Origin: Terrabacter sp. Root85 | GTDB taxonomy: Bacteria; Actinomycetota; Actinomycetes; Actinomycetales; Dermatophilaceae | Direction of reading: 5' to 3' | NCBI RefSeq assembly: GCF_001429185.1 | Contig: NZ_LMIW01000001.1 | Span: 833,490 to 897,489, forward strand | Length of the DNA: 64,000 nt | Part shown: positions 1 to 64,000 of the stretch, one piece after another | Layout of the letters: every line of letters starts with the position of its first letter | Numbering within the stretch: position 1 is the first letter of the stretch | Position numbers and translations under genes: made by a program | Notes under the pieces: generated by a model | What the model was told of the DNA's origin: nothing | Seen by the model: only the letters and a program-made list of their open reading frames with translations | Database searches by the model: none

Positions 1-184
1 GAAACCACCCCCGCCACACCGGCTCACCCTGGCCCCCGACCCCCACCAACCGGACGGGTCAGACGGGTCGGACGGGTCAGACGAGCCGGACCGCCGCAGA
101 CCACCAGCCCGACTCGGTCGCCGCTATCCCGCGCCCTCCGGTGGCACGCTGCACCTGCACCTCGTCGACTTCACCCCGACCTGA
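1..184 (+). CDS. C-terminal end of an unidentified protein (partial)
   Basis: A frame is open from the left edge to a TGA at 182-184 and gives about 60 residues. A perfect 9-bp tandem repeat (GACGGGTCN, 53-79) encodes a DGS-DGS-DGS linker. After it come a basic stretch and a plausible beta-type ending, LHLHLVDFTPT. GC use at third positions fits coding sequence, and no other frame looks better. The family cannot be named because the body of the protein lies outside the window. It could also be a chance open frame in GC-rich DNA. Confidence 0.4.
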   Translation, partial: KPPPPHRLTLAPDPHQPDGSDGSDGSDEPDRRRPPARLGRRYPAPSGGTLHLHLVDFTPT

Positions 185-229
185 GGGCGCGGCCGCCTGA
201 CGCGAACGGGGCTCAGGCCCACATCGGCA

Positions 230-1105
230 TCAGGCCTGTGTGGCGCCGATCCCCTCAGCGGCCGTCACGTCGGTCCGCTCCACGACGCGTCCTCGGACGA
301 ACCACACGAGGATCAGGCCCGCGACGATGATGATGAAGCTGAACGACCCCGCGACGGTCAGCAGGGTGTTCTGGGTCCCGTTCGTGCCCACCTCGTCGAT
401 GCCACCCGTCGACAGCAGGACGAAGGGGTCGGTCAGCCCGTGGAGCACGATCGCCGGGATGATCGATCGCGTCACGCGCATCGTGAGGTACATGCAGACA
501 CCGAACCCGAACGTGTAGGCCATCGTGACGCCCACGGTCGAGACCGCTTGACCGCTCAGCAGGTTGACCGAGTGGAGCGCCGCGAAGACCAACGAGGAGA
601 CGAGCGCCACGACGCGCTCCGAGTGACCCGCATCGCGCAGCATCTTGACCGCGATGCCGCGCGTCAGCACCTCCTCGACGAGTCCGACGAGCAACCCCGT
701 CACGATCGTGAGCACGATGACGGCGATGCCGTACTTCCCGTAGTCCGGGCCGATCACGCGCAGCACGATGGGGATCGTGACGAGGATCGGGCCCAGCCAC
801 ATCCACCGCGACCCACCGATCGGCTGCGGGCCGAAGATCTCGCGCGTCCAGCCCATCGCCCACAGGAAGACGCCGAGGACGACAGCGCCGACGATGAGCG
901 CGAAGGTGACGTCGACGAAGACGCTGCCGACGGTCGTCAGCAGCTCCTCCTCACTCTGTCGGGCGAAGACCCTCGACGCGAGCAGGCCCGCGCCGAGGTA
1001 GATCGCAAGGTAGACGACGACGAGGGGGAAGAGCCTCCAGAAGCCGCCCCGGTCGAAGAACGAGCGCAAACGGCCCCTGAGTGCTGTGGCTGAGACGTCG
1101 GACAT
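230..1105 (-). CDS. CPBP family intramembrane metalloprotease
   Basis: The product is 291 residues with about eight hydrophobic segments. It carries the CPBP (Abi) signature in order: EEVLTRG (EExxxR), then FAALHSV (FxxxH), then a third conserved block, VLHGLTDPF. Known members are membrane-embedded glutamic proteases related to Rce1, and substrates here are unknown. The chosen ATG (1103-1105) follows GGGGAG and GAGG purine runs; an in-frame ATG 13 codons upstream has no better ribosome site. It is transcribed leftward, divergent from the acetyltransferase beginning at about 1323. Confidence 0.85.
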   Translation of the reverse strand: MSDVSATALRGRLRSFFDRGGFWRLFPLVVVYLAIYLGAGLLASRVFARQSEEELLTTVGSVFVDVTFALIVGAVVLGVFLWAMGWTREIFGPQPIGGSRWMWLGPILVTIPIVLRVIGPDYGKYGIAVIVLTIVTGLLVGLVEEVLTRGIAVKMLRDAGHSERVVALVSSLVFAALHSVNLLSGQAVSTVGVTMAYTFGFGVCMYLTMRVTRSIIPAIVLHGLTDPFVLLSTGGIDEVGTNGTQNTLLTVAGSFSFIIIVAGLILVWFVRGRVVERTDVTAAEGIGATQA

Positions 1106-1322
1106 GTGGACCTCAACTCCCCTGTCGTGCGATGAGGCTGACACGTCGGCGGGTCAGCGAGTCACCACGATCATCACCCATCGCTCTGCTCGATGCCATG
1201 CGGGTTCGTCACGCCGCGGCGCCTGCGTGCGCCATACTCCCCACGCGACAGGGGACGAACCGACGCGGTGGGTCGACGGTAACCTTCACCGCTACGGAGC
1301 ACGGCAGAACGTTCTCCGCGAG

Positions 1323-3222: not shown

Positions 3223-4065
3223 TCAGAGGCGCGCGATGACCTCGTCGAGCATCGTCTCGGTGAGCTTGCCCGTGAAGGTGTTCTGCTGGCTCACGTGGTA
3301 GCTGCCGACGAGTCGCACCCGCCGCCCGGTGTCGGTGGCCAGCACGGCCTCGGCACCGTGGCCGAACCTCGGCTTGGGTCTCGGCACGTCCCACCCCCGG
3401 CGGCGGGCCGCCCCGAGCGCCGCGTCCCAGGCGATGGACCCGAGGGCGAGCATCGAGCGCAGCCGCGGCTCGGAGAGCTCGAGGTCCCGGTCGAGCCACG
3501 CCGCGCACGTCGCCTTCTCCTCGGTCGTGGGCTTGTTGGCGGGCGGGGCGCACCGGACGGCGGCGACGATGCGCAGGCCCGTCAGCACGAGCCCGTCGCC
3601 CGAGGCCACCGACGTGGGCTGGCTCGCGTACCCACCTCGGTGGAGGGCGGCATACAACCAGTCGCCGGAGCGGTCGCCGGTGAACATCCGACCGGTCCGG
3701 TTGGTGCCGTTGGCCGCCGGGGCCAGGCCGACGACGAGCACCTCCGCGTCCGGGTCCCCGAAGGAGGGCCCGGGGCGCCCCCAGTACGGCTGGTCGGCGA
3801 ACGCCGCGCGACGTCCCGCCGTCGCCACCGACTCCCGCCACGCGACGAGCCGCGGGCACGCGCGGCACACGCTGATGCGGGCATCGAGCTCGCGTATGCC
3901 GTCCGCACCCGTGGCTAGTCGGCGCACCTGCGCAGGGGTGGCCGCGACCGGTGTCTCGGACGTGGCCGGGTCACCCGGCCAGCCCGAGCCCGCCGGCACC
4001 GGCGACAGGAAGAGGCCGCCGGTGACGGGGTGCTGGGCCGGGTTCGGCAGGTCGGCGGGGCACAT
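3223..4065 (-). CDS. Uracil-DNA glycosylase, family 5 (UdgB-like)
   Basis: The 280-residue enzyme has the family-5 UDG signature: the active-site motif [19 protein letters not shown] in the middle and the closing motif [15 protein letters not shown] near the C-terminus. Cysteines for the 4Fe-4S cluster include CRACPRL and the later RCAPP/TCAAW pair. Such enzymes remove uracil and other deaminated bases and start base-excision repair. The ATG lies exactly six bases after TAGCGT (minus strand, 4072-4077), so the mRNA is probably leaderless. The Prim-PolC/LigC-like fusion at 59 kb could act in the same repair route, which is inference. Confidence 0.9.
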
Positions 4066-4071
4066 GGCCCC

Positions 4072-6169: not shown

Positions 6170-7204
6170 TCACAAGCCGGACGGCAGCCGCGTCGCCGGC
6201 GGCGTGACCGAGACCTTCTTCCCGGCGACGGTGACCTCACTGAGCCACATCGTCCGGCCGGGCACCTCCGAGCCGATCGAGTCGGGCGCCCACGCGTGGT
6301 AGACCATGAGCACGCGCCCGTCCTTCTCGAGGAGCGCGCAGTGGCCCGGGCCCGCCGCGACGTCGCTGCTCGTCAGCACCGGATCGGGGTCCTTCGTGAA
6401 GGGCCCGGTCGGGGACGCCGCCGTGGCGTGCCCGACGGCGTACCGGTCGCTGCCGTAGTCGTTGGCGGAGTAGAAGAGGTGGAAGACGCCGTCCCGCTCC
6501 CACACGAAGGGCGCCTCGACGAGCTGGCCCTCCCATGGGAGGTCCTGTCGGATCAGGCGTCTCGGCTCGCCCTCGAGTCGCAGTCCGTCGGCCGACAGTC
6601 GCTGGACGGAGATCCACGTGTCCCTGCCGACGGCGTTGCCGTCGTTCTTCCAGTAGAGGTATGCCGTGCCGTCCGACGCGACGAAGGGTGACGCGTCGAT
6701 GGAGCCGCCCTGGTCCTGCTCGCAGACGAGGGGCTTGCCGCTCGTGTCGCGGTACGGGCCCTTGGGGTCGTCGGCGACGGCGAGACCGATGCACTGGATG
6801 GCGGGGTCCGGCGCCATCGTCGTGTAGTACATGACCCACCGGTCGCCGAAGCGGTGCGCCTCGGGCGCCCAGACCTTGCCGGGTGTCGTCCACGACGCGA
6901 GCTCGGGCAGGGCGTCACTGCCCTGGGTCCACGTGGCGAGGTCGTCGCTGACGAGCGTCTGGACGTTCATCCCGTTGCCGTTGGTGGCGATGGCCACCCA
7001 GCCGTCGCCGTCCGGGAGGATCTGCGGGTCGGGGAAGTTGCTCGGCCAGACCGGATTGGTCGCGGCCGGTGCTGCCTGCGTGGCGGGGGTGGTCACGGTG
7101 CCTCCGGGATTGGTGGACAGGCTGGTCGGGGCCCCGCCCCCGCACCCGACGAGGAGCACGGCTGCGAGGGCGACGGTGGTGGTGCGGATGAGGGTGCGCC
7201 TCAT
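6170..7204 (-). CDS. Glycoside hydrolase family 43 lipoprotein
   Basis: The 344-residue precursor has a lipoprotein signal peptide (MRRTLIRTTTVALAAVLLVGCG, lipobox LVGC). The five-bladed propeller shows GH43 landmarks: NFPDPQILPDGDGW with the general-base Asp, KVWAPEAHRFGDRWVMYYT, and LVEAPFVWERDGVFHLFYS with the acid Glu. It ends with GPGHCALLEKDG. Such enzymes release arabinose or xylose from oligosaccharides. Its ATG overlaps the stop of the upstream GH43 gene (ATGA), making it the last gene of the arabinan operon. Confidence 0.87.
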   Translation of the reverse strand: MRRTLIRTTTVALAAVLLVGCGGGAPTSLSTNPGGTVTTPATQAAPAATNPVWPSNFPDPQILPDGDGWVAIATNGNGMNVQTLVSDDLATWTQGSDALPELASWTTPGKVWAPEAHRFGDRWVMYYTTMAPDPAIQCIGLAVADDPKGPYRDTSGKPLVCEQDQGGSIDASPFVASDGTAYLYWKNDGNAVGRDTWISVQRLSADGLRLEGEPRRLIRQDLPWEGQLVEAPFVWERDGVFHLFYSANDYGSDRYAVGHATAASPTGPFTKDPDPVLTSSDVAAGPGHCALLEKDGRVLMVYHAWAPDSIGSEVPGRTMWLSEVTVAGKKVSVTPPATRLPSGL

Positions 7205-12696: not shown

Positions 12697-14228
12697 TGAA
12701 CGGTCCCTTCGGAGAGTCGGATGCAGTGCCAGGAGATGGGCGGCAGGGTTGCCGTGAGGGTGGTGCCGTCGGTGCCGTCGACCGCCGCGTCCCCCGGGCG
12801 CGGGGTCACCCGGTCGGGGTGGTCCTCGGTGTTCGTCGCCGAGGGGTCGTCGTCGTGCACCTGGAGGTGCTCGACGAGGGCGTATGCCGTGGGGTGGCCC
12901 CCCACGGCGGCCGCGACGTCGAGCGTCAGCTCGGCCGTCTCGGTGCGGCTGCGGTTGACGACGAAGACGGTGAGGTCTCCGGTGTCGGGGTCGTGGGTCG
13001 CGGTGACGACGAGCGCGTCGACGGGACCGAAGGCCTGGGTCGGGGTCGCGTCGCAGCGGACGGCGGGGCGCAGCACGGTGCCCCGGGCATACCTCGCCGT
13101 GAGCGCGAAGGGGTGGAAGATCGTCTGCTTCCACGCGGCGCCGCCGGGGCGGGTGGCGATGGGAGCGATGACGTTGACGAGCTGCGCCTGGCACGCCATC
13201 GAGACGCGATCGGTGTGCTGCAGGAGGGTGATGAGCAGGCTGCCGACGACGACGGCGTCGGTGACGTCGTAGACGTCCTCGATGAGCTCGGGTGCCTCGC
13301 GGATCTCGAGGGAGCTCTCGCCGTGGAAGCGCTCCTGGAACCACACGTTCCACTCGTCGAAGGAGACCATGATCCGCTTGTCGGAGCCCTTGACGGCGGC
13401 GACGTGGTCAGCCGTCGCCACGACCGACTCGATGAAGCGGTGCATGTCCTCGCCGCTCGCGAGGAAGGAGTCGACGTCGCCGTCGACGGGCTCGTAGTAG
13501 GCGTGCGCCGAGACGTGGTCGACGAGGTCGAAGCAGCGCTCGAGGACGACGCGCTCCCACGTGCCGAAGGTCGGCATGCCGCGGTTGGACGAACCGCAGG
13601 CGACGAGCTCGAGGCCGGGGTCGACGCGGCGCATGGCGCGCGCGGTCTCCTCGGCGACCCGGGCGTACTCCTCGGCGGTCTTGTGGCCCATCTGCCACGG
13701 GCCGTCCATCTCGTTGCCGAGGCACCAGACGCGCACGTCGTGCGGCTCGGGGTGGCCGTTCTTCGCCCGCTGGTCGGGCCACGAGGTGCCGGTCTCGGCG
13801 TTGCAGTAGAGGAGCAGGTCGATGGCCTCCTGCACACCACGCGTGCCGAGGTTGACGGCCATCATCGGCTCGACGCCGACGCCGCGGGCCCAGTCGACGA
13901 AGTCGTCGGTGCCGACCTGGTTCGTCTCGACGGAGCGCCAGGCGAGGTCGAGCTGCGTGGGACGGTCGGCCTTGGGCCCGACGCCGTCCTCCCACCGGTA
14001 GTTCGAGACGAAGTTGCCGCCGGGGTAGCGCACGACGGTGACTCCGAGCTCGCGGACGAGCTGCGCGACGTCGGTGCGGAAGCCCAGCTCGTCGGCATCG
14101 GGGTGGTCGGGCTCGTAGATGCCGGTGTAGACGCACCGGCCCATGTGCTCGACGAAGGACCCGAAGGTCCTCGGCCGCACGGGCCCCACCGTGAAGGCGG
14201 GGTCCAGCCGCACCGTCGCTCGTCCCAT
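12693..14228 (-). CDS. Alpha-L-arabinofuranosidase, GH51
   Basis: The 511-residue intracellular enzyme shows the GH51 order: RTFGSFVEHMGRCVYTGIYE at the N-terminus, RYPGGNFVSNYRWEDG, the acid/base VWCLGNEMDGPWQMGHK and the nucleophile region VSFDEWNVWF. A C-terminal beta-sandwich follows. It releases arabinose from imported oligosaccharides. No signal peptide is present. The ATG at 14228 has an ideal AAGGAGG site. It is the first gene of the operon, directly downstream of two LacI-type operator repeats. Confidence 0.93.
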   Translation of the reverse strand: MGRATVRLDPAFTVGPVRPRTFGSFVEHMGRCVYTGIYEPDHPDADELGFRTDVAQLVRELGVTVVRYPGGNFVSNYRWEDGVGPKADRPTQLDLAWRSVETNQVGTDDFVDWARGVGVEPMMAVNLGTRGVQEAIDLLLYCNAETGTSWPDQRAKNGHPEPHDVRVWCLGNEMDGPWQMGHKTAEEYARVAEETARAMRRVDPGLELVACGSSNRGMPTFGTWERVVLERCFDLVDHVSAHAYYEPVDGDVDSFLASGEDMHRFIESVVATADHVAAVKGSDKRIMVSFDEWNVWFQERFHGESSLEIREAPELIEDVYDVTDAVVVGSLLITLLQHTDRVSMACQAQLVNVIAPIATRPGGAAWKQTIFHPFALTARYARGTVLRPAVRCDATPTQAFGPVDALVVTATHDPDTGDLTVFVVNRSRTETAELTLDVAAAVGGHPTAYALVEHLQVHDDDPSATNTEDHPDRVTPRPGDAAVDGTDGTTLTATLPPISWHCIRLSEGTVQ

Positions 14229-17165: not shown

Positions 17166-17849
17166 CTACTCCCGATGTCCGCCGGAAGCCATGAGGTATG
17201 CCGTCAGCTCGGCCGGGTGCGAGAGCGCGGCCAGGTGCCCGCCGGGCACGACGTCGATGTCGAGTCCCAGCCGGTCGCGCGCCACGCGACGCTGGAGGTC
17301 GACCGGGAAGAAGCGGTCGTCGGCGCCGGCGACGACGCAGATCGGCACGTCGGGCCAGGCGTCGATGGCGCACGGCGTCTCGAAGGCACGCTCGACCTCG
17401 GGACGCTGGTGCTCCTCGCCACTCGCCGCGACCGCCGGGTCGACGTCGTGGAGGAAGTACGTGTCGAGGTCGAACTCCTCGCTCCACCCACCGGCGCGGG
17501 CCGCCGCGACCCGGGCCTCCTCGCACCGCACGGCGTCCCACCACGCCCCGGCGGTCTCGCCCGGCAGCGGGACCATGGCGTTGAGCAGGACGATGCCGGC
17601 GACGGGCCGCCGCGCGGCCACCATCGGCACGGTGAAGCCGCCCATCGACTGCCCGACGACCACGACGTCGTCACGACCCTCGACCGCCGAGGTCACGAGG
17701 GCGGCATACTCCGGCAGCCCGGCGTCCGGGTCGTCGGCGGGCAGCTCGACGGCGACGGCCTCGTGGCCGGCGTCCTCGAGGAGCGGCACGACCCGGTGCC
17801 AGTACCAGGCGGCGCCACCGGCGCCGGGGACGAGCGCGAATGTGGTCAC
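17166..17849 (-). CDS. Alpha/beta hydrolase
   Basis: The 227-residue enzyme shows FALVPGAGGAAWYWHRVVPL at the N-terminus, the nucleophile elbow VVVGQSMGGF (Ser), the acid loop VAGADDRFFP (Asp), and the catalytic His in VPGGHLAALSHP. This resembles the pyrethroid-hydrolase/esterase group of small cytosolic hydrolases; the substrate is unknown. The GTG at 17849 gives the family's usual start (MTTF...) and lies seven bases after TAGCAT. An ATG three codons earlier is the alternative. Confidence 0.87.
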   Translation of the reverse strand: MTTFALVPGAGGAAWYWHRVVPLLEDAGHEAVAVELPADDPDAGLPEYAALVTSAVEGRDDVVVVGQSMGGFTVPMVAARRPVAGIVLLNAMVPLPGETAGAWWDAVRCEEARVAAARAGGWSEEFDLDTYFLHDVDPAVAASGEEHQRPEVERAFETPCAIDAWPDVPICVVAGADDRFFPVDLQRRVARDRLGLDIDVVPGGHLAALSHPAELTAYLMASGGHRE

Positions 17850-18167: not shown

Positions 18168-19994
18168 TCAGATCGTGAGGCCGTGGCCGAAGGGGAAGAG
18201 CGCGTCGTCGTAGCCCGGCACGTCCTCGCCGTGCGCCCGCACCTGGTCCATCGACCGCGGGAGGTCGAAGGGCAGCCGCCCCTCGGGCGCGATGGTGCCG
18301 GTGACGGCGTCGAGCAGGGCGTCGTCGCTGCTGCCGTAGCTGCCGACGACGGCCGACGCGAAGCGCAGCAGCGGGGTGACGACGGCCGGCCGGTCGAGCA
18401 CGACGTCGACGACGAGCGGGCAGACCGCGGCGATCCGCTCGAGCCGGGCGACGAGGCCGGGCGGGAAGTCGAGCGAGCCCTGGTGGAACCACGACTCGAG
18501 GAAGAGGTCCGACCGCGGGTCGAACGGGGCGTTGAGCCGCACGACGGCGACGTCGGCGTCCTCGGGCCGGTCGACGAGCTTGCCGTGCCGGACGACCGCC
18601 TCGGGTGAGACGCGCTCGGCGTAGATGCGCAGGCCCTGCTCGAGCGGGAGCCGATCGTCCACGTTGTGCAGCACGGTCACCGAGCGGGCCTGGGCGGCAT
18701 ACCCCTCCTCGCGGAAGTCTCCCCGACCCACGGTCGTGGCGGCAGCGTCCTCGTCGACGTAGGGGTCGTCGAACAGCCCGAGCCGGAACTTGACCGCGAG
18801 GATGCGGCGCGCCGACTCGTCGACCCGGGCCTCGGTGACCCGACCCTGGGCGACGAGGTCGAGGAGGATGTCGACGCACTCCTCGCCGCCGAACTGGTCG
18901 GCACCGGCCTCGAGGATCAGCTCCATGCGGCCGTGCGGGTCGAGGTGCTCGACGCCCCACGCGCGCGCCGGGAGCACCTGGTCACCGACGTGGTTGTCGT
19001 TGACGAGCTCCCAGTCCGTGACGACGACGCCGTCGTAGCCGAGCTTCTCGCGGAGCAGGCCGGTGACGACCTGCCTGTTGTAGCCGAAGCCGATCGGCTC
19101 GATCTCGACGCCGTCGACGACGAGGTCGACCGGCATCCCGTAGTACGGCATGATCCCCGCGGTGCCGGCCTCGATGATCGGCGGGAACGGCTTGAGGTGG
19201 TCGGCGAATCGCCCACCGGGATAGACCTGCTCGCGGCCGTAGGGGAAGTGCGCGTCCTCGCCGTCCTTCTGCGGACCGCCGCCGGGGAAGTGCTTGCTCG
19301 TGCACGCGACACTGCCCGCACCGAGCGAATCTCCTTGGAAACCCTTGAGATACGCCACTCCGAGCTCGGTCACGAGGTCGGGGTCCTGGCCGAAGGTGCC
19401 GGCCTGGCGCGCCCAGCGCGGCTCGGTCGCGAGGTCGAGCGTCGGGTGCAGGGCGGCCCGGATGCCGACGGCGGCATACTCCTGGCGGGCGATGTCGGCG
19501 AAGCGCCGCACCGCGTCCGCGTCGCGCAGCGCCGCGAGCCCCAGCGGCTCGGGCCACTGCGAGAACGCGCCCGCGGAGAAGGAGACCCCGACGTTCTCGA
19601 TGAACGCGTGCCGCGGGTCGGTCGACACCGTCACGGGTATGCCGTGTGGCGTGCGCTCGGCGAGCGCCTGCAGCGCGTTGCTCCACCGGGCCGCCATCCG
19701 CGGGTCGGCGAGCGCGTGGACGTTGAAGTGGTTGAGGTGCTTGTCGAGCACGACCGTGCTCGTCGGCGACTTGCTGATGGTGCCCGGGTGCTCGAGCACC
19801 GTGCCGTCCGAACCGGCCTCGATGACGGTCTGGAACATCAGACCGACCTTCTCCTCGAGGGAGAGCCGGCCGAGCAGGTCCTCGACCCGCTCCTCGACGG
19901 TCAGGCGTGGGTCCTCGTAGGGATCCATCCGGCCGTTGCCGTTGAGGTCGCGGTAGGCGACGCCGTCCTCGGAGGTGGAGAGCTCGGGGCGCAC
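18168..19994 (-). CDS. Glycoside hydrolase family 3 beta-glycosidase
   Basis: The 608-residue enzyme has the GH3 barrel with the K-H motif (Lys234-His235 in SKHFPGGG) and the nucleophile Asp327 in GVVVTDWEL. A C-terminal alpha/beta sandwich domain ends GRLPFDLPRSM and DDALFPFGHGL. The N-terminus carries a calcium-loop-like DLNGNGRMDPYEDP segment. No signal peptide is present, so it acts inside the cell. It closes the second sugar operon, 39 bases after the PF10091-type gene, and probably cleaves imported beta-gluco-oligosaccharides (inference). The start is GTG. Confidence 0.9.
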   Translation of the reverse strand: MRPELSTSEDGVAYRDLNGNGRMDPYEDPRLTVEERVEDLLGRLSLEEKVGLMFQTVIEAGSDGTVLEHPGTISKSPTSTVVLDKHLNHFNVHALADPRMAARWSNALQALAERTPHGIPVTVSTDPRHAFIENVGVSFSAGAFSQWPEPLGLAALRDADAVRRFADIARQEYAAVGIRAALHPTLDLATEPRWARQAGTFGQDPDLVTELGVAYLKGFQGDSLGAGSVACTSKHFPGGGPQKDGEDAHFPYGREQVYPGGRFADHLKPFPPIIEAGTAGIMPYYGMPVDLVVDGVEIEPIGFGYNRQVVTGLLREKLGYDGVVVTDWELVNDNHVGDQVLPARAWGVEHLDPHGRMELILEAGADQFGGEECVDILLDLVAQGRVTEARVDESARRILAVKFRLGLFDDPYVDEDAAATTVGRGDFREEGYAAQARSVTVLHNVDDRLPLEQGLRIYAERVSPEAVVRHGKLVDRPEDADVAVVRLNAPFDPRSDLFLESWFHQGSLDFPPGLVARLERIAAVCPLVVDVVLDRPAVVTPLLRFASAVVGSYGSSDDALLDAVTGTIAPEGRLPFDLPRSMDQVRAHGEDVPGYDDALFPFGHGLTI

Positions 19995-41605: not shown

Positions 41606-41657
41606 GGCGCTCGAATCGCGGGTGACGAGGGCGTATGCCGGCTGGCAGGCTGACGCC

Positions 41658-43550: not shown

Positions 43551-44578
43551 GGGTCGCCGTCGTCGGCGCGAGCGGCTACATCGGGTCCCGGCTCGTCCCC
43601 GAGCTGCTCCGCCGCGGCCACGACGTCGTGGCCACCCACCACCGGAGCCCGGCCACGGCATACCCCTGGTCCGGCGACGTCGAGTGGCGGCGGGTCGACG
43701 TGCACGACGAGGACCGCGTTCTCGAGGCGCTCGAGGGCGTCGACGCCATCTGCTACCTCGTGCACGGCCTCGACGCGGACGACTTCATGCAGCGCGACCG
43801 CCAGGCCGCCGACAACGTCGCGTATGCCGCTGGCGTCGTCGGCGCGGGCCGCCTCGTCTACTTCTCCGGCATCGTGCCCGACCTGCCCGACGACGAGCTC
43901 TCGGACCACCTGCTCTCGCGGCTCGAGGTCGAGGAGATCCTCGCGACGGCCGACTGCCCCGTGCTGACCCTGCGCGCGTCGATGGTCGTCGGGGCCGGGT
44001 CGACGAGCTTCGAGGTGATGCGCCAGATGTCGACCCGGCTCGGGGTCGTGCAGACCGTGCCGGCGTGGATGGGCAGCTCGGTCATCCAGCCGGTGGCGGT
44101 CGCGGACGCCGTCTGGTTCCTCGCCGAGGCGCTCGAGCGACCCGACGTGACGGGACACCTCGACGTCGTCGGGCCCGACCGGCTCAGCTACGTCTCGCTC
44201 CTGCGGACGTATGCCGCCCGCGCCCGACTGCTGCGCGTGCAGGTCCCCGTGTGGCTGGCCCCCGTCGAGACGGTCGCGCGCGTGGCCGGGGCCCTCGTCG
44301 ACGTGCCGAACGGGACGGTGGAGTCGCTCATCCCGAGCCTCGGGCACGACATGGTCGGTGAGCGCGACGCCGCCGACGTGTTCGGCGAGCCGCCGGGTGG
44401 ACGGCTCGGCGTCTCCGACGCGGTGACCCGGTCGCTCGCGACGACGCGGGCCGGAGACGGGGCCCCCGACGGGGCCGCGGTCGACGGCGACCCCCAGGCG
44501 CCGTCGGCCGGTGACCCGACGTGGTCCCGCCACCGGTCGGTCCTCGACTGGGCGTGGTCGACCGCCCGCGGGCGCTAA
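43547..44578 (+). CDS. NAD(P)-binding Rossmann protein (SDR-extended/NmrA-like)
   Basis: The 343-residue protein has the N-terminal nucleotide motif VAVVGASGYIGSRLVPELL, then ICYLVHGLDADDF, VYFSGIVPD and LTLRASMVVGAGSTSFEVMR. It is similar to NAD-dependent epimerase-like proteins that often carry a DUF2867 domain elsewhere. The C-terminal 70 residues are low-complexity. Translation is coupled to the CoxG-like gene. It converges with the SDR gene, overlapping its end by four bases. Confidence 0.85.
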   Translation: MRVAVVGASGYIGSRLVPELLRRGHDVVATHHRSPATAYPWSGDVEWRRVDVHDEDRVLEALEGVDAICYLVHGLDADDFMQRDRQAADNVAYAAGVVGAGRLVYFSGIVPDLPDDELSDHLLSRLEVEEILATADCPVLTLRASMVVGAGSTSFEVMRQMSTRLGVVQTVPAWMGSSVIQPVAVADAVWFLAEALERPDVTGHLDVVGPDRLSYVSLLRTYAARARLLRVQVPVWLAPVETVARVAGALVDVPNGTVESLIPSLGHDMVGERDAADVFGEPPGGRLGVSDAVTRSLATTRAGDGAPDGAAVDGDPQAPSAGDPTWSRHRSVLDWAWSTARGR

Positions 44579-45993: not shown

Positions 45994-46010
45994 GCCGGCA
46001 CCTCCCAGGG

Positions 46011-46045
46011 CCGTATGCCGCCGAAACCCCCTCGGCGGCATACGG
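46011..46045. terminator. Bidirectional terminator built from two GTATGCCG octamers
   Basis: A perfect 14-bp stem (CCGTATGCCGCCGA at 46011-46024, TCGGCGGCATACGG at 46032-46045) encloses a seven-base loop. It lies between the convergent Rv0909-like and DUF4097 genes. Each arm contains the octamer over-represented throughout the window. Confidence 0.7.
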
Positions 46046-46077
46046 CTTCGTCGTGTGCGGGTGCCGTGTCGGCCGCG

Positions 46078-47020: not shown

Positions 47021-47662
47021 CTATTCCGAGAGGTACTGGAGCACGGCCAGGACGCGGCGGTGGTCGCCCGCCGTCGTCGGCATGTCGAGCTTGGTGAAGA
47101 TGGCGTTGACGTGCTTGGCGATCGCGCTCTCGCTGACCTGCAGGGCGCGGGCGATGCCGGTGTTGGAGCGGCCCTCGGCCATGAGCGAGAGCGTCTCGCG
47201 CTCCCGGTCGGTGAGTCGCTGCAAGGGACTCTTGTCGCGTCGCAGCAGCAGCTGGGCGACGACCTCGGGGTCGAGCGCGGTGCCGCCGTCCGCGACGCGG
47301 CGCAGCGAGTCGACGAACTCGTCGACGTCGGCGACGCGGTCCTTGAGGAGGTAGCCGACGGCGGAGGTGGTGCTGGCGAGGAGGTCGGCGGCATACCGCT
47401 CCTCGACGTACTGGCTGAGGATGAGCAGCGCGACCTCCGGCCACTGCGCGCGGATGACGAGCGCTGCGCGCAGCCCCTCGTCGGTGTGGCTCGGCGGCAT
47501 CCGCACGTCGAGCAGGGCGAGGTCGGGTCGGTGCCGCTCCACGGCGGCGAGGGCGGCCTCGGCGTCACCGACGGCCTCGACGACCTCGATGCCGTTGGCG
47601 GCGAGCAGCCGGATCAGCCCGTCCCGCAGCAGGATCGAGTCCTCGGCGATCACGACCCGCAT
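47021..47662 (-). CDS. NarL/LuxR-family response regulator
   Basis: The 213-residue protein has a receiver domain (VVIAEDSILLRDGLIRLL with the acidic pocket, LALLDVRMPP with the phospho-acceptor Asp near residue 53, YLLKDRV with the conserved Lys). A LuxR HTH follows (LTDRERETLSLMAEGRSNTG, VSESAIAKHVNAIFTKL). Its start overlaps the kinase stop by 13 bases. It probably controls this operon, including DUF4097. Confidence 0.92.
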   Translation of the reverse strand: MRVVIAEDSILLRDGLIRLLAANGIEVVEAVGDAEAALAAVERHRPDLALLDVRMPPSHTDEGLRAALVIRAQWPEVALLILSQYVEERYAADLLASTTSAVGYLLKDRVADVDEFVDSLRRVADGGTALDPEVVAQLLLRRDKSPLQRLTDRERETLSLMAEGRSNTGIARALQVSESAIAKHVNAIFTKLDMPTTAGDHRRVLAVLQYLSE

Positions 47663-48897
47663 GGCATCTCCGCCCTGAGCACGGTGGGACCGCCCGGCGG
47701 GCTGGTCACGGTGAGGGTGCCGTCGACTGACGCGACCCGGTGGGACAGCCCCGTGAGCCCGGAGCCCCCGCCGGTGGCCGCGCCACCCTGGCCGTCGTCG
47801 CCGACCTCGACGACGAGACGGTGGGCGTCCGAGGTGACCCGGACCGTGGCCCGCGTGGCACCGGAGTGCTTCGCGACGTTGGTCAAGGCCTCCGACACGA
47901 CGAAGTAGGCGACGGCCTCGAGCGTGCGCGGCGGACGCTGGGCCAGGAGCACGTGCAGGCTCGTCGGCACCGGCGCGCGGGCGACGATCCCCGACAGGGC
48001 CGCGTCGAGCCCTCGCTCGTCGAGCACCGCGGGGTGCAGGCCGCGGACGAAGCCGCGCAGCTCGGCCAGTGCCTGCTTCGCCTCGTCGTGCGCCTCCTCG
48101 ATGGCCCGCCGCGTCTCGGGCGGCGCGTCGGGCGCCAGCGCCGAGCGGGCCATCCCGAGGTTGAGGGCGAGCGAGGTGAGGCGCTGCTGGGCGCCGTCGT
48201 GGAGGTCGCGCTCGATCCGGCGGCGCTCGGCGTCGGCGGCGTCGATCACCCCGGCACGCGTCTGCTCGAGCGCAGTGACCCGCGGCGAGAGCTGCTCGCC
48301 ACGCGTCTCGCCGAGCATCGGCCGGAGGATCGCGAGGTCGAGCGCGCCGAGCCGGCGGGCCGCGTGCGGGGCGAGGACGATGAGACCGAAGCCGACGGCG
48401 GTCGAGACCCAGATGCGGCCGACCCCCTGGAGGAGGCCACCGGAGAGGGCGAGCACCTCGGGGCTGATCCGGGCCCAGAGCGGCGACGTCACGAGGACGA
48501 GGCCGCCGCCCCAGCAGGACGCGACGACCGCGGCCGAGGCCGCGAGCAGCGTGGGACCGACGAACGCGTGGTACGCCAGCTGCCGCCACGTCGACGCACG
48601 CCCCAGCCGGGCCAGCCAGCCGCGCCATCCCGGTTCGACGGGGTCGGCCGGCGCGTGGACGACGACACCGAGCAGCGCCGCGGCCCGCGCGCGGTGCCAG
48701 CGGCTCAGCCCCTCCGACACGAGCAGGAGGAGGGCGACGAACGCGACGCCGACGACGACGACGAGCAGTCCCGTCGCGAGGCCCGCGAGCGTCCACACCA
48801 CCGGAGCCGCCAGGGCACCGACGACCCCGCCGAGCACGACGTATGCCGTGTGGCGGGGTGCGAGGCGCCGCCCGACGCGGGCACGGATCGTGGTCAC
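47650..48897 (-). CDS. Sensor histidine kinase (HisKA_3 type)
   Basis: The 415-residue membrane kinase has two N-terminal hydrophobic pairs (about residues 15-65 and 110-190). The dimerisation/phospho-acceptor motif is ERRRIERDLHDGAQQRL. The ATPase domain has N-box VVSEALTNVAKHSGAT, G1 EVGDDGQGG and G2 GSGLTGLSHRVAS. The amount of extracytoplasmic sequence is small, suggesting intramembrane sensing of envelope stress. The GTG start follows TACCGT by six bases, consistent with a leaderless operon head. Confidence 0.92.
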   Translation of the reverse strand: MTTIRARVGRRLAPRHTAYVVLGGVVGALAAPVVWTLAGLATGLLVVVVGVAFVALLLLVSEGLSRWHRARAAALLGVVVHAPADPVEPGWRGWLARLGRASTWRQLAYHAFVGPTLLAASAAVVASCWGGGLVLVTSPLWARISPEVLALSGGLLQGVGRIWVSTAVGFGLIVLAPHAARRLGALDLAILRPMLGETRGEQLSPRVTALEQTRAGVIDAADAERRRIERDLHDGAQQRLTSLALNLGMARSALAPDAPPETRRAIEEAHDEAKQALAELRGFVRGLHPAVLDERGLDAALSGIVARAPVPTSLHVLLAQRPPRTLEAVAYFVVSEALTNVAKHSGATRATVRVTSDAHRLVVEVGDDGQGGAATGGGSGLTGLSHRVASVDGTLTVTSPPGGPTVLRAEMPCGS

Positions 48898-50816: not shown

Positions 50817-51527
50817 ATGACCGAACACGTGACCATCACGACCGACGCCGGCGAGATGCCCGCGCACCTCTGGCTCCCGCCGAGCGGGCAGGGCCCGGGC
50901 ATCGTCGTGCTGCAGGAGATCTTCGGCGTCAGCGACTACATCCAGCGCCGGGCCGCCCAGCTCGCCGAGCAGGGCTACGTCGTCGTGGCACCCGAGATCT
51001 TCTGGCGCCTCGGCGTCACCTCGCCCGTCGAGGGCGAGGACGCGCTGCAGCAGGGCATGGGTCTCGTGCAGCGCCTCGACTGGCCGGCGGCCGTCTCCGA
51101 CGCCGCCGCGACGGTCGAGTGGCTGCGCGACCGTGACGAGGTCACGGCCGGTGTCGGCGCGGTCGGCTTCTGCTTCGGCGGCGGGCTCGGCTTCAACGTC
51201 GCCGGCCACCTCGAGTCCGACGGCTCGGCTCCGCTCGACGCGCTCGTCAGCTACTACGGCTCGGCCCTGCCGGGACTGCACGACGTCGTGACCGTGACCG
51301 CGCCGAGCCTGCACCACTTCGGCCTCGCCGACTCGTTCATCGACACCGAGACGGTGCGCCGGATCGAGGCGTCCGTGACCGTTCAGCCCGCCACCGTCTT
51401 CGAGACGTATGCCGGCGCCGACCACGCGTTCGACAACGACGACATGCCGTGGCACGACCCGGCGTCCTCGGCCCTCGCCTGGGCGACGACGAGCGAGTTC
51501 CTCCGCGAACGGCTGCCCGTCGACTGA
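50817..51527 (+). CDS. Dienelactone hydrolase family protein
   Basis: The 236-residue alpha/beta hydrolase has the DLH catalytic Cys in VGAVGFCFGGGLGFN, His in AGADHAFDN and Asp in HFGLADSFID, with the N-terminal IVVLQEIFGVSDYIQRRAAQ typical of the family. Members hydrolyse dienelactone in chloroaromatic degradation or other small esters. No aromatic pathway genes adjoin, so the substrate is open. Confidence 0.9.
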   Translation: MTEHVTITTDAGEMPAHLWLPPSGQGPGIVVLQEIFGVSDYIQRRAAQLAEQGYVVVAPEIFWRLGVTSPVEGEDALQQGMGLVQRLDWPAAVSDAAATVEWLRDRDEVTAGVGAVGFCFGGGLGFNVAGHLESDGSAPLDALVSYYGSALPGLHDVVTVTAPSLHHFGLADSFIDTETVRRIEASVTVQPATVFETYAGADHAFDNDDMPWHDPASSALAWATTSEFLRERLPVD

Positions 51528-54116: not shown

Positions 54117-55234
54117 CGGCCGGGCCTCGCGAGCTCGTTGACCGCGCCGCGGAAGACCGGGGGCAGCGTCGCGGCGGCGGGGACGAGCAGCCGCCGGGTC
54201 CAGGCCGGTCGCGTGACCTGGACGAGCGCGTGGGTGAGCAGCGTGTAGCGCCGGGTGGCCGCACGCCACGACCGCTCGTAGGACTGCGGGTCATCGGCGA
54301 CGACCGCCGCGACCGCCGCCCGCGCGTGGGCGAGGCCGAGCGAGATGCCTTCTCCCGTCAGGGCGTCGACGTAGCCGCTCGCGTCTCCGGCGAGCAGGAC
54401 GCGGCCCTCGACGCGGTGTGTCGTGCGCTGGCGCAGCGGCCCCGCGCCGCGCACCGACGTCACGACCGGCGCCCCGTCGAGGCGGTCGCGCAGCTCCGGG
54501 AACTCGGCGAGGCTCTCGGACAGGGGGTTTCGCTGCTTGCTGAGCACAGCCACCCCGACGAGGTCGTCGGCGACGGGCGTCACGTACGCCTCCCCGTGCG
54601 CGCCCCAGTGCACCTCGACGTGGTCTCCCCAAGGGCGTATGCCGTAGTGCTGGCGCAGCCCGTAGCGGCGGAGCGGGCGCGTGTCGGCGGTCCGAGCGAC
54701 GCCTCCGCTCCCGCTCCCGCTCGACAGGCGGCGGACGGTGGTGTGGTCGCGGTCGAGCCCGAGGGAGCGGCGGGTCGGCGAGTGCAGCCCGTCGGCGGCG
54801 ATGACCCACGGCGCGGTGAGTGTCGGCCCCTCACCACCCGAGTCGTCGGTGCGCACGGTCACGGCGGTGTCGTCCTGCGTCACCTCGGTCGCGCCGAACG
54901 GGAGCACCTCGACGCCGGCGGCGGCGACGGCCTCGCTCAGGGCGGCGTGCAGGGTGGTGCGCCGGATGCCGCGGCCGGGACCGGCCGTGAAGTCCGCCTC
55001 GGCGACCCGGCCCCGGGCGACGTAGCGGATGCCGCGGAGGTCGTGTCCGTCCGGGTCGACCCCCAGGCCGGCGAGCGCCTGGAGACCGCCGGGCATCAGA
55101 CCCTCGCCGCAGGCCTTGTCGATGGAGCCGGCCCGCGGCTCGAGGACGACGGGAGACAGACCGGAGCGGACGGCATACAACGCCGTGGCGAGACCGACGG
55201 GTCCGCCGCCGATGACGATGACGTCGATACTCAC
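54113..55234 (-). CDS. FAD-dependent geranylgeranyl-reductase-family oxidoreductase
   Basis: The 373-residue flavoprotein has the N-terminal dinucleotide motif VIVIGGGPVGLATALYAVRS, the family signature ACGEGLMPGG, a middle APWVIAADGLHSPTRRSLGL and the FAD motif VLLAGDASGYVDALTGEGIS. Members reduce prenyl double bonds or hydroxylate aromatic rings. In this cluster either saturation of a prenyl chain or ring hydroxylation is plausible. The GTG start overlaps the methyltransferase stop. Confidence 0.88.
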   Translation of the reverse strand: MSIDVIVIGGGPVGLATALYAVRSGLSPVVLEPRAGSIDKACGEGLMPGGLQALAGLGVDPDGHDLRGIRYVARGRVAEADFTAGPGRGIRRTTLHAALSEAVAAAGVEVLPFGATEVTQDDTAVTVRTDDSGGEGPTLTAPWVIAADGLHSPTRRSLGLDRDHTTVRRLSSGSGSGGVARTADTRPLRRYGLRQHYGIRPWGDHVEVHWGAHGEAYVTPVADDLVGVAVLSKQRNPLSESLAEFPELRDRLDGAPVVTSVRGAGPLRQRTTHRVEGRVLLAGDASGYVDALTGEGISLGLAHARAAVAAVVADDPQSYERSWRAATRRYTLLTHALVQVTRPAWTRRLLVPAAATLPPVFRGAVNELARPGR

Positions 55235-56957: not shown

Positions 56958-57764
56958 GTGGCGGTGCGGCGGATGGTGCGAGGACTGGCGCTCGCCTGCC
57001 ATCCGGGCCCGACCGTGGCCGTCACCGTGCTCACGGCGCTGCTCGCCTGGTCGGCCGGACACACGCTGGGTCGCGGCGTCCTCGTGACCACGGCCGTGCT
57101 CACCGGACAGCTGTCGATCGGGTGGTCCAACGACCTCGTCGACGCGCGCCGGGACCGCGCCGTGGGGCGCACCGACAAGCCCCTGGCCGCCGGCGCCGTG
57201 ACCGAGCGGGTCGTCCGGGCCGCCTGCGCGGCAGCCCTGGCCGCGTGCGTCGTGCTGTCGCTCGCGTGCGGCTGGGCCTCGGGCCTCGTCCACCTGCTCC
57301 TCGGCGTCGCGTCCGGCTGGGCCTACAACCTGTGGTTCAAGCGCACCGCGCTCTCCCCGCTGCCGTATGCCGTCGCGTTCGCCGCGCTGCCGGCCGTCGT
57401 CACGCTCGCCCTCCCCCACCCCGTCTGGCCGCCGGCGTGGGTGCTCGTGACCGGGGCGCTGCTCGGGGTGGGCGCCCACCTGCTCAACGCCCTGCCCGAC
57501 CTCGCCGACGACGAGGCGACCGGGGTGCGCGGGCTGCCGCACCGGCTCGGGGAGCCGGTCGTGCGGTGGCTGGCACCCGCGGTGCTGCTCGCGGGGTCGG
57601 TCGTGGCGGCATTCGGCCCCGGTCTCGACGCCACGGGGCTGGGACTGCTCGCGGCGTGCGTGGCCCTCGCGGTCGTGGCCGTCGTGGGGCGCGGGCGGCT
57701 GCCGTTCGTCGCGGCGGTGCTCATCGCCCTCGCGAACGTCGTCAGCCTCGTCGCGCGCAGCTGA
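56958..57764 (+). CDS. UbiA family prenyltransferase
   Basis: The 268-residue membrane protein has about eight helices and both Asp-rich motifs: GWSNDLVDARRDRAVGRTDK (NDxxD) and LPDLADDEATGVRGLPHRL (DxxxD type). It attaches a prenyl chain to an aromatic or quinone acceptor. Divergence from the type III PKS operon with a matched promoter indicates it prenylates the polyketide product. Confidence 0.92.
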   Translation: MAVRRMVRGLALACHPGPTVAVTVLTALLAWSAGHTLGRGVLVTTAVLTGQLSIGWSNDLVDARRDRAVGRTDKPLAAGAVTERVVRAACAAALAACVVLSLACGWASGLVHLLLGVASGWAYNLWFKRTALSPLPYAVAFAALPAVVTLALPHPVWPPAWVLVTGALLGVGAHLLNALPDLADDEATGVRGLPHRLGEPVVRWLAPAVLLAGSVVAAFGPGLDATGLGLLAACVALAVVAVVGRGRLPFVAAVLIALANVVSLVARS

Positions 57765-61747: not shown

Positions 61748-61957
61748 GCCGAGCTCCTTTGCCGCGTGGGCGCCGGTGTCGACGTCCACCTCGATTCTAT
61801 CGAGCCGCCTTGGCGTCCAACTGTTCCGGACCTATGAGGGTGGTCACCACGAAGATGCGACACCGCCTCTCCGTGCCCCCAGCGCCTGACACGGCTGCGG
61901 ACGTATCGGGCCATGCCGAGTCCGTCCGCCGCCCCCTTTCCGGAGGACGATGGCGAG

Positions 61958-62959
61958 ATGGACGCGACCCCTGACCTCAGATCGATGATCATCGGCTTCC
62001 GGACGTCGGCGGCCGTCAGCACGGCCGCCGAGCTCGGGCTCAGCGACGAGCTGGCGTCCGGGTCGATGTCCCTGGCACAGCTCGCCGCACGCGTGGGGGC
62101 GGACGAGGACACTCTCAGCCGGCTCATGCGGATGCTCGTCGCACTGGGTTTGTATGCCGTGTCGACCGAGGGCACCTACACCGCAACGTCGCTCGGGGCC
62201 GGGTTGCGCACCGATGCCCCCGGCTCGCTGCGCCCCCTGGCCCGCACGATCCAGGACCCGGCGACGTGGGCGGCCTGGGGTCACCTCACCCACAGCGTCC
62301 GGACGGGCGACACCGCCTTCTCGGCCCTGCACGGTGAGGACGTCTGGACCTACCGGGCCTCCCACGCGCGGGCCAACGCGGTCTTCAACGACACCATGGC
62401 GGCTCTGACGTCGAGGGTGGCCACGGCGGTGGCGAGCTCATACGACTTCACGGGGCTGACCTCGGTCGTCGACGTCGGCGGCGGGCTGGGGGCGCTGCTC
62501 GAGGCCGTCCTGGCCGGCCACGAGCACCTCGACGGCACGGTGTTCGACCTTCCCCAGGCGCTACCAGCCGGGCCGCCCTCGACGGCGAGCGAGTCGGTCG
62601 CGTCCCGGTGGTCGGTCGCGGCGGGCAGCTTCTTCGACGCGGTCCCGCCTGCCGATGCATACCTGCTCAAGAAGGTGCTGCACGACTGGTCCGACACGAA
62701 GTGTGTCGAGATCCTGCGCACCTGCCGCCGCTCGCTCGCACCGGGCGGGGTGGTGCTCGTCGTTGAGCTCGTGCTCGACCGACCGGGCCACGAGCTCCAG
62801 TCGGCCCTGTCCGACCTCAACATGCTCGTGCTGCCGGGTGGGCGCGAGCGCACGGCGGCGGAGTTCGACGCGTTGTTCGTCGCCGCCGGCTTCGAGCCCG
62901 CGCGACTGGTGGAGACCGACGCCGACGTCGTGATCCTCGAGGCACGCACTGACCGCTGA
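61958..62959 (+). CDS. SAM-dependent O-methyltransferase (PF00891 type)
   Basis: The 333-residue enzyme has an N-terminal winged-helix dimerisation domain (AELGLSDELASGSMSLAQLA, LSRLMRMLVALGLYAV) and a Rossmann methyltransferase domain with SAM motif SVVDVGGGLGALLEAVL, KKVLHDWSDTKCVEILRTC and LAPGGVVLVVELVL. It methylates hydroxyl groups of small, often secondary, metabolites. ATG at 61958 has GGAGGA ten bases upstream; ATG at 61913 is the alternative. It may serve the polyketide pathway, but it is 5 kb away. Confidence 0.88.
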   Translation: MDATPDLRSMIIGFRTSAAVSTAAELGLSDELASGSMSLAQLAARVGADEDTLSRLMRMLVALGLYAVSTEGTYTATSLGAGLRTDAPGSLRPLARTIQDPATWAAWGHLTHSVRTGDTAFSALHGEDVWTYRASHARANAVFNDTMAALTSRVATAVASSYDFTGLTSVVDVGGGLGALLEAVLAGHEHLDGTVFDLPQALPAGPPSTASESVASRWSVAAGSFFDAVPPADAYLLKKVLHDWSDTKCVEILRTCRRSLAPGGVVLVVELVLDRPGHELQSALSDLNMLVLPGGRERTAAEFDALFVAAGFEPARLVETDADVVILEARTDR

Positions 62960-63028
62960 GCGCACTGGCCGGGAGCGGATCCCAGCCAATGTCCTGCGGA
63001 CGCGTGGCGTGAGCGGTTCCATGGGGTG

Positions 63029-64000
63029 ATGACGCAGGTGGGACTTCGCACCCGGCTGGGAGACGGCTTCCGGGCGAGAGCGCTCCGGGTGGGCACGTCC
63101 AACCTCGAGCGCGCCGTCAGGGTCGTGGTGCTCCTGGGTCATGCCTGGGCAGCACTGCTGTGCCTCATGATCGCCACCGGTTGGCGCGGACGCGCCGTGC
63201 TCAACGAGATCAGCGGGGACACGTACTGGCCGTGGCAGTCGATCGTCACCGTGGTTGCCCTGGGCGTGGTCATGGTGACGATCAGCATCGGTGCCGTACG
63301 CTCTGCCCCACGTCAGCGCGTCGTGCTGAGTGGCGCCGCACTGATCATCGCCCTCTTCACCATGGACGCCCTGTCCCTGGGGTCGGCGCGGCTGTGGCTC
63401 GTCGCACTCGGACTCGCTTGCACTGCAGCGGCGCTCACGCTGCCAGCGGGAGGGCGCAACCACGAGGCCGCGCGCTGCTCCCTGGCGTCCGCGCCTGCGG
63501 TCATGGCACTCGTCGCCACGGTCCGGAGCTCGGACGTCGACCAGGCGCTCGCCGCGATCCGAGGCCGCAGCCTCGCTCCGGCGGCGTCAATCCTCCTGTC
63601 GCTGCTGACGATCTTCGCCCTGGCTACCTCGGTCGAGGGGCAGCGGGAGCGCACCGGCCGTTTGCTGCGCTGGCGCGTCACCCGGCAGGCGGTGATCGCG
63701 GCGGTGGTCCTCAAGCTCCTGCTCCTCGCAGGGCTCTACCTCCACGTGACGGGTGGATTCCTCGGCGGAGAGGTCTTCTGGCGACCTCGCGTCGACCAGC
63801 CCCTGTCCTGGTTGCATGCCGCGCTCGTTGCCGGGTTGATGGTGTCCGTCGCCGCATGGAGTGCGCGTCGCCCCTTGGCTGCGGGCGGTTTCCCGCCGCG
63901 GCTCGCCGCTGTCTCGCTCGGCGTCGGCATCATGGAGGTGGCGGCCCTCGCGACGCTCGTCGCGATCACCGTGGTGGGGACCGTCGTGCCCTCGGCCGAC
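63029..64000 (+). CDS. Polytopic membrane protein, unknown (truncated by window end)
   Basis: An ATG at 63029 opens a frame that stays open through the last base (324 codons). Hydrophobic segments include VRVVVLLGHAWAALLCLMIA, QSIVTVVALGVVMVTISIGA, ARLWLVALGLACTAAALTLP and ILLSLLTIFALATSVEG. More helices follow near the end (VIAAVVLKLLLLAGLYLHV, LAAVSLGVGIMEVAALATLV). No domain is recognised. GGGGTG lies just before the ATG. The C-terminus lies beyond the window. Confidence 0.7.
   Translation, partial: MTQVGLRTRLGDGFRARALRVGTSNLERAVRVVVLLGHAWAALLCLMIATGWRGRAVLNEISGDTYWPWQSIVTVVALGVVMVTISIGAVRSAPRQRVVLSGAALIIALFTMDALSLGSARLWLVALGLACTAAALTLPAGGRNHEAARCSLASAPAVMALVATVRSSDVDQALAAIRGRSLAPAASILLSLLTIFALATSVEGQRERTGRLLRWRVTRQAVIAAVVLKLLLLAGLYLHVTGGFLGGEVFWRPRVDQPLSWLHAALVAGLMVSVAAWSARRPLAAGGFPPRLAAVSLGVGIMEVAALATLVAITVVGTVVPSAD

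What the first reader, a model, noticed from the sequence alone, without database searches (positions are those of the whole stretch)
1..64000. Octamer GTATGCCG is strongly over-represented in both orientations, in several reading frames and between genes
Reading both strands by eye I count about 34 copies of GTATGCC, of which about 32 extend to GTATGCCG. At about 72% G+C an octamer with five G/C and three A/T should occur about twice in 64 kb on both strands. Copies split roughly 19 to 15 between strands, so there is no strand bias of the FtsK-orienting kind. They occur in different codon frames: TAT-GCC and GCA-TAC, both rare codons here, and GGT-ATG-CCG, as in the polymerase gene at 29575 and the permease gene at 23237. 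They also occur outside genes (26266, 42928, the stem at 46011). This points to a DNA-level function such as recombination hot-spot, methylation target, uptake or nucleoid-protein site.
Basis: partly seen in the sequence, partly recalled or inferred. Interest (0 to 1): 0.7.

Follow-up and report, generated by a model that had tools for sequence, protein, structure and literature searches.

The report
Strand-read genome word with dialects
A soil actinobacterium and many of its relatives carry thousands of copies of one short DNA word, spaced regularly on each strand separately and swapped for a different word in some genera, which points to an unidentified machine that reads self DNA one strand at a time.

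Summary
Confirmed and extended. GTATGCCG occurs 32 times in the window (0.8 expected) and 2300 times in the 4.87-Mb genome, a Terrabacter (Intrasporangiaceae/Dermatophilaceae). It is not codon usage: 282 copies in sampled coding DNA against 15 after synonymous shuffling, and 3.5 times denser between genes. By my count 106 of 186 family genomes carry at least 400 copies; none of 229 genomes of 19 other families exceeds 177. Some genera lacking it use another word: GTACGGCG (10 of 186 genomes with 900 or more) or CGAAGGGG (19 of 49 tested). Copies on one strand avoid each other (34 pairs within 1 kb; strand-label shuffles 69.9 +- 5.9); opposite-strand copies do not. RecBCD is not needed (own genome lacks RecC). 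ComEC, Tad, DprA and AdnA are present with and without the word, and no residue of AdnA, AdnB, ComEA or ComEC clearly tracks the dialect. Best guess: a Chi-like end-processing signal, AdnAB the prime candidate; a strand-read DNA uptake sequence is nearly as likely.

The parts
3648..3655 (-). GTATGCCG, in gene, sense
3894..3901 (+). GTATGCCG, in gene, antisense
6659..6666 (+). GTATGCCG, antisense (GCA-TAC frame)
12882..12889 (+). GTATGCCG, antisense (GCA-TAC frame)
17196..17203 (+). GTATGCCG, antisense (GCA-TAC frame)
17702..17709 (-). GTATGCCG, sense (TAT-GCC frame)
18695..18702 (-). GTATGCCG, sense, in glycoside hydrolase family 3 gene
19472..19479 (-). GTATGCCG, sense, same gene
19637..19644 (+). 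GTATGCCG, antisense, same gene
23235..23242 (-). GTATGCCG, sense, GGT-ATG-CCG frame
26267..26274 (+). GTATGCCG, between genes
26845..26852 (-). GTATGCCG, sense, third frame
29577..29584 (+). GTATGCCG, sense, GGT-ATG-CCG frame, in a DNA polymerase IV-like gene
30531..30538 (-). GTATGCCG, antisense
30766..30773 (+). GTATGCCG, sense
36273..36280 (-). GTATGCCG, sense
38830..38837 (-). GTATGCCG, one arm of inverted pair inside a gene
38844..38851 (+). GTATGCCG, other arm of inverted pair
39359..39366 (-). GTATGCCG, sense
41633..41640 (+). GTATGCCG, sense
43656..43663 (-). GTATGCCG, antisense
43822..43829 (+). GTATGCCG, sense
44209..44216 (+). GTATGCCG, sense
46013..46020 (+). GTATGCCG, left arm of intergenic hairpin between convergent genes
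46036..46043 (-). GTATGCCG, right arm of intergenic hairpin
46008..46048 (.). hairpin built from the two inverted copies (17 pairs as RNA; 61-nt stretch -34.4 kcal/mol, z -4.5); no terminator-like T tract found
47389..47396 (-). GTATGCCG, sense
48841..48848 (+). GTATGCCG, antisense
51407..51414 (+). GTATGCCG, sense
54637..54644 (+). GTATGCCG, antisense
55171..55178 (-). GTATGCCG, sense
57365..57372 (+). GTATGCCG, sense
62152..62159 (+). GTATGCCG, sense

Best explanation
GTATGCCG is a self-DNA word read by a sequence-specific machine that looks at one DNA strand, so that copies in the two orientations serve two independent directions. Selection or biased recombination keeps one copy per roughly 4 kb on each strand. 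The most likely machine is a DNA-end resecting helicase-nuclease of the RecBCD/AddAB/AdnAB kind, for which the word acts like Chi: it switches the enzyme from destroying DNA to promoting recombination. AdnAB is the candidate, because nearly every genome of the family has an AdnA relative and the window's genome lacks RecC. Shown: enrichment, dialects, maintenance at one locus, and strand-specific spacing within about 1-2 kb. Inferred: that a protein reads the word, that it moves along one strand, that the outcome is recombination, and that it is AdnAB.
For: Same-strand pairs within 1 kb: 34 observed, strand-label shuffles 69.9 +- 5.9, lowest of 5000 shuffles 50. Same-strand/expected ratio within 1 kb 0.37; lowest of 226 control octamers 0.76. 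Opposite-strand pairs are near expectation from 250 bp to 4 kb (0.99, 0.87, 0.98, 1.07). Same-strand gaps over 10 kb: 3 and 3 against 10.6 and 9.3 for random placement. Neutral opposite-strand pairs fit a polar reader with one need per direction. A relative of AdnA matches in 181 of 186 family genomes; in the own genome two adjacent genes each carry a UvrD-type helicase and a PDDEXK nuclease domain, which is the AdnAB layout described in PMC13309787 (passage); the names AdnA and AdnB are mine from this layout, as no NCBIfam model passes its cut-off. Excess over synonymous shuffling, 282 against 15.2. In five close relatives at 83-93% identity 26 of 31 aligned sites are kept, where 28-63% of all octamers are kept. 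[quoted passage not shown]
Against: Known Chi is polarised with replication (PMC8022716, passages); here no clear polarity: halves of G103 83:77 and 90:102, its origin not located; agreement with GC-skew sign 133 against 149 in the own sample and 195 against 157 in G103 (summed), the latter a weak trend. In 400 kb of E. coli MG1655, Chi itself shows no same-strand exclusion under 1 kb (13 observed, 14.3 expected, 96 sites). AdnA and AdnB do not track the dialect: best site score 1.33 and 1.13, reached by 26.5% and 75.5% of label shuffles, and GTACGGCG-type G084 differs at only 3 of 247 and 2 of 298 columns invariant in ten GTATGCCG-type genomes. AdnA is also present in genomes without a detected word, such as G008, G114, G099 and G161. 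Exclusion is weak for CGAAGGGG in G093 and for GTACGGCG alone in G084. The largest gap on the - strand is not unusual (P 0.11). Intergenic inverted pairs and dialects are better known from uptake sequences.
Confidence: 0.4

Rival explanations
1. A DNA uptake sequence for natural transformation, of a new strand-read kind. A receptor of the competence machinery (ComEA, a Tad pilin or an unknown protein) prefers DNA with the word, and transformation spreads the word by molecular drive. Because Gram-positive uptake passes a single strand, only the strand carrying the word profits, so copies compete only with copies on the same strand.
For: Lack of clear chromosome polarity, intergenic excess, inverted intergenic pairs and genus-level dialects match USS/DUS as described in PMC1939737, PMC7811141 and PMC3630211 (passages; abstract of the last). 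ComEC in 180 of 186, Tad ATPase family in 184 of 186, DprA in 28 of 28 tested, ComEA- and ComEC-like proteins of full length in the own genome, below the NCBIfam full-family cut-offs. Words sharing part of their letters (GTATGCCG, GTATGGCG, GTACGGCG) look like DUS dialects.
Against: Known uptake does not depend on orientation (PMC1939737), so an orientation-blind receptor predicts that opposite-strand copies exclude each other too, which is not seen. ComEC, Tad and DprA are also present in genomes without a detected word. No ComEA or ComEC residue clearly tracks the dialect (best 1.14 and 1.48, reached by 48.5% and 8.5% of label shuffles). Type IVa pilus PilM matches in only 5 of 186 genomes. 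No member was shown here to be competent.
Confidence: 0.32
2. A strand-specific mark such as single-strand methylation or another modification, used for strand discrimination in repair or for self-recognition in defence, needing a site on each strand every few kb.
For: Strand-independent regular coverage; non-palindromic word. That such a mark would serve repair is inference.
Against: Recognition sites of modification enzymes are usually not enriched (recalled). No modification data were available, and no methyltransferase was looked for.
Confidence: 0.15
3. By-product of codon usage, codon pairs or mutation bias.
For: In genes most copies use TAT-GCC (172 of 282) or GCA-TAC (65 of 282).
Against: Intergenic density 1.30 per kb against 0.37 in genes and a synonymous-shuffle expectation of 15; half of all TAT codons (172 of 347) sit in the word; strand-specific spacing; related genera have other words.
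Confidence: 0.02
4. A chromosome-organisation site such as a KOPS-like, nucleoid-protein or SMC site.
For: Regular spacing on each strand.
Against: No clear polarity; orientation-dependent exclusion is not expected of a protein that simply binds a duplex.
Confidence: 0.06

Closest known systems
DNA uptake sequences of Neisseriaceae (DUS) and Pasteurellaceae (USS)
   Same: Thousands of copies, no clear chromosome polarity, excess between genes, inverted pairs between genes, dialects among related genera
   Different: Octamer core rather than 9-12 letters; an actinobacterium; spacing depends on strand; uptake role untested
Chi sites (E. coli GCTGGTGG and Chi-like motifs of other bacteria)
   Same: Non-palindromic octamer; spacing behaves like that of a strand-read signal; a RecBCD-type enzyme (AdnAB layout) is present
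   Different: No clear replication polarity; regular spacing not seen for E. coli Chi in 400 kb; RecC absent from the own genome
HIP1 of cyanobacteria (recalled)
   Same: Highly iterated octamer of the genome
   Different: HIP1 is palindromic; this word is not
KOPS/FtsK-orienting sequences (recalled)
   Same: Short non-palindromic octamers
   Different: No polarity of the kind that orients towards the terminus was found

Membership tests
DNA uptake sequence | Strong genome-wide excess of a short word | tested here: met
DNA uptake sequence | No chromosome polarity | tested here: met
   a weak trend in G103, 195 against 157; origins not located
DNA uptake sequence | Intergenic excess and inverted pairs | tested here: met
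   (9 of 11 neighbour pairs within 60 bp inverted in the own sample)
DNA uptake sequence | Competence genes present | tested here: met
   but also present in genomes without a word
DNA uptake sequence | Orientation does not matter | tested here: not met
   strand-specific exclusion, (indirect evidence from spacing; not checked on real USS or DUS genomes)
DNA uptake sequence | DNA with the word is taken up preferentially | not testable with these tools
   needs transformation assays
Chi | Over-represented short word read in one orientation | tested here: inconclusive
   over-representation met; strand-dependent spacing fits one-orientation reading but does not prove it
Chi | Polarised with replication | tested here: not met
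Chi | RecBCD with RecC (Proteobacterial type) | tested here: not met
   RecC absent from G000; 89 of 186 family genomes have it, with and without the word
Chi | A RecBCD/AddAB/AdnAB-type enzyme is present | tested here: met
   AdnAB layout
Chi | Reader residues change with the word | tested here: not met
   AdnA and AdnB, ten GTATGCCG-type against seven GTACGGCG-type genomes; low power
Chi | The word changes the enzyme or stimulates recombination | not testable with these tools
   needs biochemistry or genetics
KOPS / FtsK sites | Polarity towards the terminus | tested here: not met
HIP1 | Palindrome | tested here: not met
   sequence itself

The most novel reading that the evidence does not exclude
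The family shares one strand-read self-DNA recognition system with at least three dialects (GTATGCCG, GTACGGCG, CGAAGGGG), maintained independently on each strand by a reader that has not been described. As far as the searches show, this would be the first such genome word reported in Actinobacteria: either the missing Chi of AdnAB or the first strand-read uptake sequence of a Gram-positive.
Probability: 0.55. Interest if true: 0.9.

Novelty: new variant of a known kind. Interest (0 to 1): 0.78.

Why it matters
If it is the Chi of AdnAB, it answers a question stated as open in papers of 2016 and 2026 (PMC4824097, PMC13309787) and gives a tool for recombination in actinobacteria. If it is an uptake sequence, self-specific transformation exists outside Neisseriaceae and Pasteurellaceae, in a lineage with other pili.

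Tried and rejected
RecBCD as the required reader: rejected, RecC absent from the own genome and from 8 of the 9 genomes of its genus (own included), all nine rich in the word. T4aP as a marker: PilM in 5 of 186 only. Presence or absence of ComEC, Tad ATPase, AdnA and DprA (28 chosen genomes) does not separate genomes with and without the word. Residue covariation with the dialect: nothing clear in AdnA or AdnB (ten GTATGCCG-type against seven GTACGGCG-type sequences) or in ComEA or ComEC (eleven against six); ComEC came closest (8.5% of label shuffles reach its best site). The mixed genome G144, the weak G183 and two or three genomes with neither word (G011, G099, G161; G053, which has CGAAGGGG) were left out of that score; ComEC of G099 lay outside the fetched stretch. 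Terminator at the window hairpin: no terminator-like site found. CGAAGGGG as a ribosome-binding site: only 5 of 28 intergenic GAAGGGG copies in G053 lie just upstream of a called start. CGAAGGGG as a general word of RecC-bearing genomes: not enriched in RecC-bearing G103, G084, G114 or G008. De novo search for a replacement word in G161, G157, G114 and G008 found none standing out in 40-120 kb each. Literature: searches (643 papers hold the letters; 20 seen in the listing, none about a genome word by title) listed no report of this word; the library lacks most subscription journals. I could not test USS or DUS spacing by strand, as no Pasteurellaceae or Neisseriaceae genome was fetched. Genes were called with a simple home-made caller (from then on), not Prodigal.
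Full report
The observation. GTATGCCG occurs 32 times in the window on both strands, 0.81 expected from shuffles and 2.05 from an order-3 Markov model. Genome-wide there are 2300 copies against 237 for the reversed letters.

It is a DNA word and not codon usage. In 844 kb of the own genome (402 sites) 110 sites are intergenic, 193 sense, 89 antisense and 10 at gene edges; coding DNA makes up 90%. Density is 1.30 per kb between genes and 0.37 in genes; 282 copies in coding DNA compare with 15.2 +- 3.7 after synonymous shuffling. Of 347 TAT codons 172 lie in the word; 172 of 231 Tyr-Ala contexts that could hold it do hold it, as do 65 of 145 Ala-Tyr contexts in the other orientation. The core is the octamer, with weak preference for GGC before and T/C after it in the own genome and other neighbours in other genera.

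It is maintained. In the LeuS-ComEC region, summed over five close relatives (four named Terrabacter and Intrasporangiaceae bacterium URHB0013), 26 of 31 aligned own sites are intact, while 28-63% of all octamers are intact. In word-bearing but more distant Intrasporangium oryzae and Humibacillus xanthopallidus 2 of 4 and 2 of 4 are intact (30% and 36% of octamers). In Intrasporangium flavum, which has lost the word, 0 of 5 aligned sites are intact although 34% of octamers are. The sample is one locus, and the same own sites are counted in several relatives.

Distribution. I counted 106 of 186 family genomes with at least 400 copies in the table. Some genera and single species have almost none: G008, G084 and G114 have 37, 19 and 50 copies, while congeners have 394 to 3681. 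None of the 229 genomes of 19 other families of the order exceeds 177 copies; a few show ratios of about 3 to 4 to the reversed control at low counts (my reading of the table). The 229 were drawn from a larger group.

Dialects. A de novo screen for octamers in excess both in genes (synonymous shuffling) and between genes returned GTATGCCG first in the own genome, G103 and G079, and GTACGGCG first in G084. G084 holds 3117 copies of GTACGGCG and 19 of GTATGCCG. Ten of 186 genomes have at least 900 GTACGGCG: G002, G003, G012, G013, G015, G084, G088, G089, G090 and G144; the last also has 625 GTATGCCG. G103 also enriches GTATGGCG, 81 in coding DNA against 13.8. In G053 the screen returned CGAAGGGG and its one-letter shift GAAGGGGG. 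CGAAGGGG has 1198-2588 copies in 16 of 16 genomes of genus g27 and 2589-3180 in 3 of 3 of g36, and at most 315 in the other 30 of 49 genomes tested. That CGAAGGGG is a dialect of the same system is an inference from its behaviour, from exclusivity and from a shared preference for GGC before it, a trinucleotide common in such DNA. G161, G157, G114 and G008 gave no word.

Spacing depends on strand. In the own genome same-strand pairs are at 0.26, 0.22, 0.50 and 0.75 of expectation at 0-250, 250-500, 500-1000 and 1000-2000 bp; opposite-strand pairs are at 1.80, 0.99, 0.87 and 0.98. The first opposite-strand value reflects inverted pairs, several of which lie between genes (the window pair 46013/46036 folds at -34.4 kcal/mol, z -4.5). 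Shuffling strand labels over fixed positions gives 69.9 +- 5.9 same-strand pairs within 1 kb against 34 observed. In the 460-kb stretch the coefficient of variation of same-strand gaps is 0.60 and 0.63, against a mean of 1.03 and a minimum of 0.74 in control words; both strands merged give 0.82, no more regular than two independent strands (0.74 +- 0.03). Gaps over 10 kb are rare, though the largest - strand gap is not unusual. The effect is not confined to pairs within one gene. It is shorter-ranged in G103 and G079, present in G084 with GTACGRCG (13 against 24.7 within 250 bp; weaker for GTACGGCG alone) and in G053 with GAAGGGG (6 against 15.9 within 500 bp), and weak in G093. Opposite-strand copies 250-1000 bp apart: convergent 38 against 36 expected and divergent 28 against 36 in the own genome, 57 and 73 against 61.5 in G103, so no consistent depletion. 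E. coli Chi in 400 kb shows no exclusion.

What this says about mechanism. A reader that binds a duplex without regard to orientation predicts exclusion between all neighbours. The data instead say that copies on the two strands are independent, as for a machine that reads one strand or travels in one direction. Chi has that logic, but known Chi is polarised with replication (PMC8022716, passages), which is not clearly seen here. Uptake sequences match the other features, but known uptake is orientation-independent (PMC1939737, passages); an uptake sequence read on the entering single strand would also give the pattern. I therefore hold two main mechanisms and prefer the Chi-like one slightly.

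RecC is in 89 of 186 genomes and absent from the own one. ComEC is in 180 of 186, the Tad ATPase family in 184, an AdnA relative in 181, DprA in 28 of 28 tested, PilM in 5 of 186. The own AdnA and AdnB candidates each join a UvrD-type helicase to a PDDEXK nuclease domain. AdnA, AdnB, ComEA and ComEC reading frames were recovered in the genomes fetched for the comparison, except ComEC of G099, which lay outside its stretch, and none has a residue that clearly follows the dialect.

Site-poor DNA. The poorest 20-kb stretch of G103 (1 site) has 66% G+C and holds a Wadjet-type defence cluster, an OLD-like gene and a SNF2 helicase gene, as expected of acquired DNA; this is one island. The longest run free of sites in the 460-kb own stretch (10.3 kb) is a ribosomal protein operon: five of its genes tested match SecY, L6, L5, S3 and L16.

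Noticed in passing
G053 (L016, L017, L214-L220): Repeated words TGCCCGGGCA, CGCAACTGCC and ACCCGATAAA far above expectation, apart from the CGAAGGGG word; they look like parts of dispersed repeats.
   Followed up: no
G084 (L012, L221-L227): About 14 copies of a repeat containing CGAATCGGAT and GAATCCGATT in 160 kb.
   Followed up: no
G103 L069 4490-14171: Wadjet-type cluster (DUF3375, DUF4194, SbcC/MukB-like ATPase, JetD) beside an OLD-like gene in a stretch almost free of the word.
   Followed up: partly
own genome sample (584 kb): The palindrome AAGCGCTT is over-represented (26 counted over both strands, 3.6 expected at order 5).
   Followed up: no
family f1: RecC is very patchy: 89 of 186 genomes, with differences inside genera (present in G175 but not in the other eight genomes of its genus).
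   Followed up: partly
L082 66-966: Two short ORFs with IS4/5-type transposase domains at the end of contig C1, beside adnAB.
   Followed up: partly
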